IMG/VR virus record: IMGVR_UViG_3300044797_000185 | Location: 53,837 to 117,836 of that record | Length of the DNA stretch: 64,000 nt | Source: a virus | Strand: one strand, 5' to 3' | Notes under the pieces: generated by a model | What the model was told of the DNA's origin: nothing | Databases searched by the model: none | What the model saw: only the letters and a program-made list of their open reading frames with translations | Shown here: positions 10,775-19,521 of the stretch, piece after piece | Numbering within the stretch: the stretch's first letter is position 1 | Layout of the letters: each line of letters opens with the position of its first letter | Program-made: the position numbers and the translations under genes

Positions 10775-10863
10775 ACACCCTTAGCATAATGGTAGTGCAG
10801 CGAGTTTATACCTCGTAAGTCCTAGATTGGGGCGTGATGTAGGTTCGACTCCTACAGGGTGTA
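10775..10863 (+). tRNA. tRNA-like gene, anticodon UAU (Ile, codon AUA), enlarged variable region
   Basis: The cloverleaf can be drawn by hand: acceptor ACACCCT/AGGGTGT (7 bp, extendable to 10), D-stem GCAT/GTGC with loop AATGGTA, anticodon stem GCGAG/CTCGT with loop TTTATAC, T-arm GTAGG-TTCGACT-CCTAC. The variable region (10817-10838) is 22 nt and may form a GTCC/GGGC stem, as in class II tRNAs, yet UAU is not a class II anticodon. No encoded CCA. AUA is common in A+T-rich phage genes, so an AUA decoder makes sense. Tool verification of the isotype would be useful. Confidence 0.75.
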
Positions 10864-10885
10864 CTAAGTTTCTTGAAAAATTAGT

Positions 10886-10988
10886 GCTGAGGTAGCTCAA
10901 TGGTAGAGCAGTTGTTTTGTGAGCCTAAAATTGCGAGTGGGCTCATATAAACAACAGGTTGCAAGTTCGAGTCTTGTCCTCAGCTCCA
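10886..10988 (+). tRNA. tRNA-Thr(UGU) with a 28-nt insertion in the anticodon loop
   Basis: Acceptor GCTGAGG/CCTCAGC with encoded CCA (10986-10988), D-arm GCTC-AATGGTA-GAGC, anticodon stem GTTGT (10911-10915)/ACAAC (10951-10955), variable AGGTT, T-arm GCAAG-TTCGAGT-CTTGT. The loop between the anticodon strands is 35 nt instead of 7. Removing 10921-10948 (or the same segment shifted by one) leaves TTTGTAA, a proper loop with anticodon UGU. The GCTGA start agrees with bacterial tRNA-Thr. The insertion folds into a hairpin, TGAGCC (10920-10925) with GGCTCA (10940-10945). A functional tRNA would need this segment removed. Confidence 0.8.
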
Positions 10989-13630: not shown

Positions 13631-13659
13631 TTGACAGATTGTTATTTACCTGCTATACT
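13631..13659 (+). promoter_or_regulatory. Sigma70-type promoter for the permuted tRNA-like RNA and polysaccharide operon
   Basis: TTGACA at 13631-13636, 17-bp spacer, TATACT at 13654-13659. The expected start (about 13666) coincides with the first base of GAGGAG, which forms the first helix of the structured RNA downstream. Confidence 0.85.
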
Positions 13660-13665
13660 TATTTT

Positions 13666-13760
13666 GAGGAGTCAATGTGGGTTCGAATCCCACTTTTGCC
13701 ATTTGGCGAAATAGCTTAATTGGATACTGAAAAGGGAACCATAAGGCAAAGCAGCTCCTC
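13666..13760 (+). ncRNA. Circularly permuted tRNA-like RNA (3' half precedes 5' half)
   Basis: Order along the RNA: anticodon-stem 3' strand GGAGT (13668-13672), short variable loop CAAT, perfect T-arm GTGGG-TTCGAAT-CCCAC (13677-13693), acceptor 3' strand TTTTGCC (13694-13700), ATTT linker, acceptor 5' strand GGCGAAA (13705-13711; 7 pairs, one G-U), TA, D-stem GCTT (13714-13717) with TTGG in the loop, a ~22-nt D-loop insertion, D-stem AAGC (13749-13752), A, anticodon-stem 5' strand GCTCC (13754-13758). The whole cloverleaf is present but permuted at the anticodon loop. GAGGAG/CTCCTC gives an alternative 6-bp end helix. No acceptable anticodon loop with U33 is seen, so a decoding role is doubtful. 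A two-piece tRNA-like or tmRNA-like RNA, or a structured mRNA leader, are the alternatives. Confidence 0.65.
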
Positions 13761-13874
13761 ACAAATTTTGTTTCTCCTCTAGGTAGTTAGGATTAAGTTC
13801 TTAACATAGCGTTCAGGGAGAGGAGCTAACGTGGGTAGAGTGAACGTAGCCCACATAATATAAAGGGAGATACC
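13761..13874 (+). promoter_or_regulatory. Structured leader between tRNA-like RNA and deacetylase gene
   Basis: CTCCTCT (13774-13780) pairs with AGAGGAG (13819-13825); GTGGG (13831-13835) pairs with CCCAC (13850-13854); CGTTCA (13810-13815) could alternatively pair with TGAACG (13841-13846). The GAGGAG, 5 nt, GTGGG, loop, CCCAC order repeats the start of the tRNA-like RNA, so competing pairings are possible. The ribosome site AAAGGGAG precedes ATG 13875. Confidence 0.45.
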
Positions 13875-14597
13875 ATGAAAAAGTTACTTATGTTGTTGGT
13901 GTTGGCTGTTCCACTTCATGCTGAAGTTACCTTTACGTTTGACGATGGCTCACGGACTCAGATTGATCATGGGTATCCAGTTCTCTTCAAATATCATTAC
14001 CCTGCGACAATCTATCTTGTTACTAAGCCATTAGGACATGATGATTGGTATATGAATTGGGGAGATGTGAAGACATTGGAACTAGCGGGTTGGGATATTG
14101 AAGCCCATACTCGAACACATCCTCATCTAGATAAGCTTACTCATAAACAACTTGTGGCTGAGCTTGATGGGTGCAGAGCAGATCTTAAGTGGCATGGTTA
14201 TCCTGCTAGGCATTTTGCTACACCATATGGTGAGACAGATCCTGCAGTTCAACGTGAACTTAAGAAAAGATTCGTTAGTGTTCGTGCTGGAGAGGTCATT
14301 GGTAATGAACTTAATTGGGAAAATAAATTAAATCGTTATAATCTCTCTATCTTTCCTTTGACGGAAAGTACAGACTTGGAATTGGTGAAACGTCTCATTG
14401 AACATGGAACTTTTGAGAAACGTTGGTTGATTCTTATGGTTCACAAAGTACTTCCAGATGGTGATCCTCATTTGAAGACTGATAGATGGAGTGTCAGTGT
14501 GAGTAAGCTTCAGGCAGCTGCAGCTTATTGCAACATTCAAGGCACCAAGGTTGTAACAGTGGATCAATACTTTAAATCTCATGGTCTGGAGAAATAA
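13875..14597 (+). CDS. Secreted polysaccharide deacetylase (CE4/NodB family)
   Basis: A 240-residue protein with a clear signal peptide (MKKLLMLLVLAVPLHA). NodB motifs: TFTFDDG (catalytic Asp and metal Asp), HTRTHPHL (metal His pair), FATPYGE. The length is that of a minimal NodB domain. CE4 enzymes remove N-acetyl groups from GlcNAc polymers such as chitin oligomers, PNAG or peptidoglycan. It lies in a cluster with a secreted protein and a processive GlcNAc-type glycosyltransferase, which points to making or modifying an extracellular polysaccharide. This stretch reads as less A+T-rich than its neighbours, so recent acquisition is possible. Confidence 0.85.
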   Translation: MKKLLMLLVLAVPLHAEVTFTFDDGSRTQIDHGYPVLFKYHYPATIYLVTKPLGHDDWYMNWGDVKTLELAGWDIEAHTRTHPHLDKLTHKQLVAELDGCRADLKWHGYPARHFATPYGETDPAVQRELKKRFVSVRAGEVIGNELNWENKLNRYNLSIFPLTESTDLELVKRLIEHGTFEKRWLILMVHKVLPDGDPHLKTDRWSVSVSKLQAAAAYCNIQGTKVVTVDQYFKSHGLEK

Positions 14598-18669: not shown

Positions 18670-19521
18670 ATGATTAACAAATTAACATCTGAACAAGAAC
18701 AGCAAATAAAAGAATATTTTAATACCTACCTATCTAAAGGTTTATCTACCACACCCTCAAATAAATCCGTTGCAGAAATAGCTATTAAACGAATGTCTAA
18801 GTTATTAAATGAAAAAGAACCTGAAATAAGATGGGTTAAAAGCCCTATGGAGTTAATTAAATTGTGGAAAGCTAAATCTCTTTATTCATCTCTTTATTCA
18901 TCTCTTTATCCATCTCTTTATTCATCTCTTTATCCATCTCTTTATTCATCTCTTTATTCATCTCTTGATTCATCTCTTCGTTCATCTCTTTATTCATCTC
19001 TTGATTCATCTCTTGATTCATCTCTTTATTCATCTCTTCGTTCATCTCTTTATTCATCTCTTTATTCATCTCTTCGTTCATCTCTTTATTCATCTCTTGA
19101 TTCATCTCTTTATTCATCTCTTGATTCATCTCTTCGTTCATCTCTTTTATGGGGACAAGGAAATGCCAATTGGATTCCCTTTTTTAAATATTGCACTGAA
19201 GTATTAAAGATTAAATATGATGCCCAAGATGTTGAAAAATTAAATCTTTGGGTTAGCATGATGGAATGTTCTTATTTCCTTATATTTAAGAAGCTTGTTG
19301 TTTTAATGGAACATCCAAAAGAAATTCATGTAGATAATAAAGGATTAAACCACAATCTTGAGGATTATGCAATTAAATGGTATGATAATACGGGTATTTA
19401 CGTTGTGCATGGTGAAGTAGTTGATGCTTTAGATATTGAACAATTATTTAAGGGTAAAAAGATAACTAATTTAGAATATTTGGGTAGCAAGTACAAGGAA
19501 TCGAGTGAAAGTATATTGTAG
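18670..19521 (+). CDS. DUF6745-type protein with 22 four-residue SL[YDR]S repeats
   Basis: A 283-residue protein. Residues 1-69 are a helical N-terminus; residues 70-157 are 22 units of S-L-x-S, where x is Tyr, Asp or Arg. The C-terminal part resembles DUF6745: an IPFFKY helix, a KLVVLMEHPKEIHVDNKG strand pair and IKWYDNTGIYVVHGEVV. The very end has TNLEYLGSKY, the motif shared by many small proteins here. The repeat tract stays in frame because the unit is 12 bp, so gain or loss of units would change length without breaking the gene. Function unknown. Confidence 0.7.
   Translation: MINKLTSEQEQQIKEYFNTYLSKGLSTTPSNKSVAEIAIKRMSKLLNEKEPEIRWVKSPMELIKLWKAKSLYSSLYSSLYPSLYSSLYPSLYSSLYSSLDSSLRSSLYSSLDSSLDSSLYSSLRSSLYSSLYSSLRSSLYSSLDSSLYSSLDSSLRSSLLWGQGNANWIPFFKYCTEVLKIKYDAQDVEKLNLWVSMMECSYFLIFKKLVVLMEHPKEIHVDNKGLNHNLEDYAIKWYDNTGIYVVHGEVVDALDIEQLFKGKKITNLEYLGSKYKESSESIL
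18877..19140 (+). repeat. 12-bp tandem repeat, 22 units
   Basis: Twenty-two consecutive copies of a 12-bp unit with consensus TCTCTTTATTCA, exactly in the reading frame. Variation is confined mostly to codon 3 (TAT, GAT or CGT) and twice to codon 4 (CCA for TCA). Confidence 0.95.

What the first reader, a model, noticed from the sequence alone, without database searches (positions are those of the whole stretch)
13631..13874. Circularly permuted tRNA-like RNA in a phage, driven by its own promoter
All cloverleaf parts are present in permuted order: T-arm GTGGG-TTCGAAT-CCCAC and acceptor 3' strand come first, then a 4-nt ATTT linker, then acceptor 5' strand, D-arm and anticodon-stem 5' strand. 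The predicted transcription start falls at the first base of the first helix. The D-loop carries about 22 extra nt, and the downstream leader repeats the same GAGGAG-5nt-GTGGG...CCCAC order, so alternative pairings could switch structure. Permuted tRNA genes are known in algae and archaea, and permuted (two-piece) tmRNA in some bacteria, but this has neither a tmRNA-like acceptor (no G3-U70) nor a tag ORF. A two-piece tRNA mimic, decoy or regulatory leader is inferred.
Basis: partly seen in the sequence, partly recalled or inferred. Interest (0 to 1): 0.92.

Follow-up and report, generated by a model that had tools for sequence, protein, structure and literature searches.

The report
Phage tRNA-mimic Y RNA plus pseudoknot RNA
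The "scrambled tRNA" in this phage looks like a Y RNA, a known class of RNA that imitates a tRNA with its parts in permuted order, and right behind it in the same leader lies a second small RNA with a conserved pseudoknot that recurs in the tRNA clusters of unrelated large phages and matches no catalogued RNA family.

Summary
A permuted cloverleaf (T-arm, acceptor hairpin, D-arm, ends closed by an 8-bp helix) lies at 13665-13761, just after a near-consensus promoter; 0 of 200 shuffled windows gave one. It is not a permuted tRNA gene or tmRNA. This layout defines the bacterial Y RNA YrlA, and the best Rfam match is YrlA (29.3 bits, below the curated 69). Phage RNAs of this layout beside Ro-protein genes score the same (26.7-37.6), and 16 of 20 phage records retrieved by this layout carry a Ro-like gene, usually just downstream. 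No Ro-like gene was found in this phage's 117.8-kb record, so it is a Y-RNA-like mimic without a visible partner.

The downstream half (13774-13854) is a separate RNA. It is shared with Streptomyces Samistivirus phages, Myxococcus phage Mx1 and metagenomic phages up to 485 kb, mostly inside tRNA clusters. It has three helices and a pseudoknot: 94% of cells paired, 17 of 25 pairs changed on both sides, and three complementary pseudoknot versions. Rfam has nothing like it. The proposed two-piece tRNA and structure switch are not supported. Most likely function: a non-cleavable tRNA decoy or scaffold, followed by a small RNA of the phage tRNA operons.

The parts
13631..13659 (+). sigma-70-type promoter TTGACA-17-TATACT (TG before the -10); predicted start near 13665-13667
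   Evidence: 11 of 12 matches, shuffled mean 1.7 sites in the region
13665..13672 (+). closing (basal) helix, 5' strand TGAGGAGT
   Evidence: MFE fold
13677..13693 (+). T-arm GTGGG-TTCGAAT-CCCAC
13694..13711 (+). closed acceptor hairpin TTTTGCC-ATTT-GGCGAAA (7 bp, one G-U)
13712..13752 (+). TA plus D-arm; TTGG present; D-loop about 22 nt longer than usual; 3' strand AAGC 13749-13752 or AGGC 13744-13747
13754..13761 (+). closing helix, 3' strand GCTCCTCA
13654..13777 (+). extent of the YrlA (RF02553) covariance-model match, 29.3 bits
13774..13780 (+). pseudoknot RNA, P1 5' strand CTCCTCT
13786..13805 (+). pseudoknot RNA, P2 hairpin GTTAGG...CTTAAC
13810..13815 (+). pseudoknot strand a, CGTTCA
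   Evidence: complementary to strand b in every real copy; CGTGCA and CGCGCA elsewhere
13816..13825 (+). invariant GGGA and P1 3' strand AGAGGAG (13819-13825)
13831..13854 (+). P3 hairpin GTGGG-TAGAG-TGAACG-TAG-CCCAC; loop holds pseudoknot strand b (13841-13846)
13875..14597 (+). downstream gene, polysaccharide deacetylase (PF01522), ribosome-binding site AAAGGGAG just before it

Best explanation
One promoter drives a leader with two independent non-coding RNAs. The first (13665-13761) is a Y-RNA-like (YrlA-type) tRNA mimic: T-arm, a permanently closed acceptor hairpin and a D-arm rebuild the tRNA elbow, while the RNA's own ends form the helix that replaces the anticodon arm. It most likely works as a Y RNA does, or as a stand-alone decoy: the tRNA-like end engages tRNA-binding enzymes (modification enzymes, PNPase, tRNA nucleases) without offering an anticodon loop or a CCA end, and the basal helix can dock a Ro-type ring protein, here from the host or from an unsequenced part of the phage. 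The second (13774-13854) belongs to an apparently undescribed pseudoknot RNA family of phage tRNA operons, most likely released by tRNA processing as a small trans-acting RNA and here carried in the 5' leader of a polysaccharide deacetylase gene. Shown: the structures, the layout shared with YrlA, the Ro linkage in other phages, and the covariation of the second RNA. Inferred: transcription, processing, partners and function of both.
For: The permuted cloverleaf is not chance (0 of 200 shuffles). Best Rfam match is YrlA, E 1.9e-4 in the region and 1.3e-5 in the record. Phage RNAs of this layout next to Ro genes score 26.7-37.6 bits with the same model (L132, Sparky). TROVE or phrog_850 Ro-like genes are in 16 of 20 phage records retrieved by the permuted pattern; in 9 of the 10 TROVE-bearing records the match lies 0.4-1.3 kb downstream on the same strand. 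Mycobacterium phages Sparky and prophiGD43A-5 and Gordonia phage BearBQ show this with annotated Ro-like proteins, and Alice with an 'RNA-binding protein' that matches TROVE. Second RNA: 17 sequences, 94.1% of cells paired against 75.5% shuffled, 17 of 25 pairs changed on both sides, covariation 0.491 against 0.171; pseudoknot versions CGTTCA/TGAACG, CGTGCA/TGCACG and CGCGCA/TGCGCG; next to same-strand tRNAs in most loci.
Against: The YrlA score is below Rfam's gathering cut-off (69), and tandem tRNA pairs also give weak YrlA hits: 19.8 bits in this same record, and sub-threshold hits in 13 of 14 control genomes at E<=1. No Ro-like gene was found with TROVE, phrog_850 or a phage Ro alignment in the 117.8-kb record. 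The inner 4-bp stem of YrlA is missing and the D-loop is enlarged. No close relative of this exact permuted RNA was found, so covariation of its own pairs could not be tested. The relatives were retrieved by their tRNA-like pairing, so their pairing is not independent evidence.
Confidence: 0.72

Rival explanations
1. Real permuted tRNA gene: the transcript is circularised or held as two pieces, cut at the ATTT linker, given CCA and aminoacylated.
For: Acceptor, T- and D-arm consensus are intact; permuted tRNA genes are known in other domains of life.
Against: There is no anticodon arm: only TCAAT separates the closing helix from the T-arm. No CCA is encoded. Relatives close the acceptor with stable tetraloops. 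No RtcB was found in the record.
Confidence: 0.07
2. Cis-acting 5' leader (riboswitch or attenuator) of the polysaccharide deacetylase gene, switching between alternative GAGGAG/CTCCTC and GTGGG/CCCAC pairings.
For: Both RNAs lie between a promoter-like site and the gene; the repeated sequences can cross-pair.
Against: The MFE of the whole leader keeps both domains. In relatives the second RNA sits among tRNA genes, not before this gene, and its helices keep pairing with other sequences. No terminator-like site was found.
Confidence: 0.12
3. Permuted (two-piece) tmRNA remnant.
For: Same order of acceptor and D pieces; a pseudoknot follows.
Against: No G3-U70 pair, no ARAGORN tmRNA, no Rfam tmRNA match at E<=10 in the region.
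Confidence: 0.02
4. Second RNA as a self-cleaving ribozyme that processes phage tRNA arrays.
For: About 20 invariant positions around a pseudoknot; often flush between tRNAs.
Against: Topology differs from pistol (recalled from memory) and no Rfam ribozyme matches; no conserved nucleotides at the outer borders that could flank a cleavage site.
Confidence: 0.15

Closest known systems
YrlA, bacterial Y RNA (Rfam RF02553; Chen et al. 2014, cited in PMC7790460)
   Same: Stem formed by the 5' and 3' ends; tRNA-like module with T-arm, closed acceptor hairpin and D-arm in permuted order; found in phages too.
   Different: Lower model score (29.3 against 69), no inner 4-bp stem, D-loop about 22 nt longer, no Ro-like gene found in the record, followed by a second structured RNA.
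Phage Y RNAs next to Ro-like proteins (Mycobacterium phages Sparky, Alice, prophiGD43A-5; Gordonia BearBQ; Enterococcus PEf771; proposed for Listeria CKA15, PMC12282133)
   Same: Same permuted layout and similar YrlA scores.
   Different: They keep an anticodon-arm-like hairpin inside the closing helix and sit just upstream of a Ro-like gene; the window element has neither.
Permuted tRNA genes of algae and archaea; two-piece tmRNA
   Same: Order of the parts.
   Different: Those are processed to aminoacylatable RNAs; this has no anticodon arm, no CCA, no G3-U70 and no tag ORF.
Small pseudoknotted RNAs (type III antitoxins such as ToxI, pistol ribozyme), for the second RNA
   Same: Compact RNA with one pseudoknot.
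   Different: No tandem repeats, no toxin gene beside it, different helix order; no Rfam match.

Membership tests
YrlA-type Y RNA | Permuted tRNA-like module: T-arm, closed acceptor hairpin, D-arm | tested here: met
YrlA-type Y RNA | Basal helix formed by the 5' and 3' ends | tested here: met
   8 bp, 13665-13672 with 13754-13761; Ro binding itself not testable
YrlA-type Y RNA | Score above Rfam's curated YrlA cut-off (69 bits) | tested here: not met
   29.3 bits; Ro-linked phage Y RNAs also fail it (26.7-37.6)
YrlA-type Y RNA | Ro/Rsr protein encoded in the same genome | tested here: inconclusive
   none by PF05731, phrog_850 or a phage Ro alignment, but the record may be a fragment
YrlA-type Y RNA | Modified by tRNA enzymes (DusA, TruB); binds Rsr and PNPase | not testable with these tools
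   needs biochemistry; described for YrlA in PMC8394870
permuted tRNA gene | Complete anticodon arm with an anticodon | tested here: not met
   only TCAAT between closing helix and T-arm; no tRNA by ARAGORN or Rfam
tmRNA (permuted) | G3-U70 pair and tag reading frame; tmRNA model match | tested here: not met
any Rfam family, for the second RNA (13774-13854) | Match to one of 4227 covariance models | tested here: not met
   no plausible match for the window copy and none at E<=1 for the L181 copy
type III antitoxin RNA, for the second RNA | Tandem RNA repeats followed by a ToxN-like toxin gene | tested here: not met
   single copy in the record; neighbours are a polysaccharide deacetylase here and mostly tRNAs elsewhere

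The most novel reading that the evidence does not exclude
13774-13854 is a member of an undescribed, phage-specific RNA family: about 85 nt, three helices and a pseudoknot with near-invariant GCG(..)CAGGGA and TAGAGTG(..)CGTA, embedded in the tRNA operons of unrelated large phages (Streptomyces, Myxococcus, jumbo phages to 485 kb). It acts in trans on tRNA metabolism or on a host defence that attacks tRNAs, and is here paired with a Y-RNA-like tRNA mimic.
Probability: 0.6. Interest if true: 0.75.

Novelty: new variant of a known kind. Interest (0 to 1): 0.58.

Why it matters
The permuted RNA extends Y-RNA-like tRNA mimics to a phage with no visible Ro protein and no anticodon-like hairpin, a natural test of whether the mimic works as a stand-alone decoy. 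The second RNA is a strongly covarying family in about 50 sequenced phages, including Streptomyces phages that grow in laboratory hosts, so its expression and deletion phenotype can be tested directly. Many phages carry large tRNA clusters whose purpose is debated; a non-coding RNA conserved inside those clusters is a handle on that question.

Tried and rejected
Pseudoknot RNA in bacterial genomes: 26 exact-pattern hits in 84,980 species genomes, none with the matching helices or loop on inspection, so chance. Relatives through the flanking phosphoesterase and deacetylase genes: none. Plasmids: none. L179, L180 and L217-L219 pattern hits rejected (L180, L217-L219 not complementary in the pseudoknot; L179 lacks the helices). 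A TROVE-negative group (L099, L117, L128, L136, L166) first looked Ro-free, but phrog_850 finds a Ro-like gene in each. Group I intron halves around the permuted RNAs: none in Rfam at gathering. Promoter scan alone is weak evidence.

Full report
Observation. T-arm 13677-13693, acceptor 3' strand 13694-13700, ATTT, acceptor 5' strand 13705-13711, TA, and a D-arm beginning at 13714 are enclosed by an 8-bp helix between 13665-13672 and 13754-13761; this is the minimum free energy fold (-32.3 kcal/mol, z -2.8). A scan requiring the T-arm, a perfect 7-8 bp acceptor hairpin, a D-stem and a 7-bp closing helix finds only this site on either strand of the 64-kb window and nothing in 200 shuffled windows. 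ARAGORN and Rfam (gathering) report no tRNA or tmRNA here. A promoter-like site TTGACA-17-TATACT lies so that transcription would start near 13666.

What the permuted RNA is. With relaxed thresholds the best Rfam match in the region is YrlA, the bacterial Y RNA (29.3 bits, E 1.9e-4), aligning T-arm, acceptor hairpin, D-arm and closing helix. YrlA is described as a stem of the 5' and 3' ends plus a tRNA-like domain resembling D, T and acceptor arms; it is modified by DusA and TruB, its stem tethers the Ro-like ring protein Rsr and its tRNA-like end binds PNPase (PMC8394870). The score is far below the curated cut-off (69), so I asked what phage RNAs of this layout look like. A degenerate T-arm/D-arm pattern in viral contigs, filtered for a closed acceptor hairpin, gave more than 20 such RNAs, often in arrays. 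Similarity searching with one array led to Mycobacterium phages Sparky and prophiGD43A-5 and Gordonia phage BearBQ, where the RNA lies just before a gene annotated 'Ro-like RNA binding protein', and to Mycobacterium phage Alice, where the gene is annotated 'RNA-binding protein' and matches TROVE. Of 20 phage records with the layout, 10 have a TROVE domain and six more have a phrog_850 RNA-binding protein, the family that also matches Sparky's Ro protein. In nine of the ten TROVE-bearing records the match lies 0.4-1.3 kb downstream on the same strand. These Ro-linked RNAs score 26.7-37.6 bits with YrlA, the same range as the window element. Phage Y RNAs have been reported before (PMC12282133, citing Chen et al. 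2014), so the kind is known.

How the window element differs. It has no anticodon-like hairpin or inner stem, only TCAAT between closing helix and T-arm; its D-loop is about 22 nt longer; and no Ro-like gene was found in the 117.8-kb record by TROVE, phrog_850 or a phage Ro alignment, nor RtcB. The record may be a fragment, so absence is not proven. I therefore call it YrlA-like, not a proven Y RNA.

The second RNA. Blast of the region against phage genomes gave matches not to the tRNA-like part but to its downstream neighbour (window about 13776-13858), in Myxococcus phage Mx1 and Streptomyces phages. Pattern scans of viral contigs added metagenomic phages of 49-485 kb. Seventeen distinct copies align. 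Three helices and a pseudoknot account for 25 pairs: 94.1% of cells paired (shuffled 75.5%, slid 35-50%), 17 pairs with changes on both sides, covariation score 0.491 (shuffled 0.171, 0 of 500 shuffles as high). The pseudoknot was left open at four positions on each side in the last scan: every copy with the other helices is complementary (CGTT/AACG, CGTG/CACG, CGCG/CGCG), and the three chance hits are not. A covariance model without the pseudoknot finds one copy in each such phage and one in the window's record (82.5 bits), and none in phages selected only for Y RNAs. No Rfam family matches. I found no paper describing it among those searched, which does not exclude one elsewhere.

Setting. 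In most loci the second RNA lies in a same-strand tRNA cluster, sometimes flush between tRNAs: L025 between two tRNA-Met genes, L012 between tRNA-Ala and tRNA-Val, L018 directly before tRNA-Met, Mx1 and L008 directly after a tRNA. In Samistivirus phages a promoter-like TTGACA-17-TAGAGT precedes it. In the window it follows the tRNA mimic and precedes a polysaccharide deacetylase gene. Four of 11 phages with this RNA also have a TROVE match (one, Mx1, below the cut-off but supported by phrog_850), so it is not strictly tied to Ro.

Mechanism. Shown: structures, layout, linkage of the layout to Ro in other phages, and covariation of the second RNA. Inferred: the mimic presents a tRNA elbow and closed acceptor, so it can engage tRNA-binding enzymes without being charged, extended with CCA or cut in an anticodon loop it lacks. 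Wolin and colleagues noted that YrlA is not cut by the Salmonella anticodon nuclease and might act as a competitive inhibitor (PMC7790460); a phage would profit from that. The second RNA, which in several other phages lies flush between tRNAs and would be excised by tRNA processing, most likely acts in trans; what it binds is unknown. A structure switch between the two is disfavoured because the leader's MFE keeps both domains and relatives change the shared motifs.

Verdict. The more novel object is the pseudoknot RNA that fills the rest of the given coordinates.

Noticed in passing
window 10886-10986: tRNA (Rfam 60 bits, CCA encoded) whose anticodon loop is replaced by a 35-nt insert that extends the anticodon stem into a 17-bp hairpin; ARAGORN misses it. 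A second anticodon-less tRNA body about 2.7 kb upstream of the permuted one.
   Followed up: partly
window 10775-10864: tRNA with a UAU anticodon but a long, class-II-like variable arm.
   Followed up: no
L221:1953-2102 (Fusobacterium phage Fnu1) and L178:7681-7828: A permuted tRNA-like body nested inside the anticodon arm of a complete outer tRNA: two tRNA bodies fused through their anticodon stems, in two unrelated phages. Fnu1 has a phrog_850 Ro-like gene elsewhere.
   Followed up: partly
L010:2644-2749 (- strand): tRNA-like RNA with an extended anticodon arm, directly after the pseudoknot RNA.
   Followed up: partly
L099, L101, L117, L128, L134, L136, L166, L220: Subclass of permuted phage Y-RNA-like RNAs with a shared CAGCAA (CAGCTAA in L166) just after the 5' closing strand; most records have a phrog_850 Ro-like protein with no TROVE hit.
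   Followed up: partly
L140:6511-6644 and L167:2432-2565 (coordinates on the reverse strand): tRNAs with related 67-nt inserts in the anticodon loop, in two viral contigs.
   Followed up: no
L014:8153-8517 (363-kb phage): Phage-encoded class A RNase P RNA (299.5 bits) near a tRNA cluster.
   Followed up: no
window 18670-19521: Predicted 283-aa protein with a long SLYSSLYSSL-type repeat.
   Followed up: no
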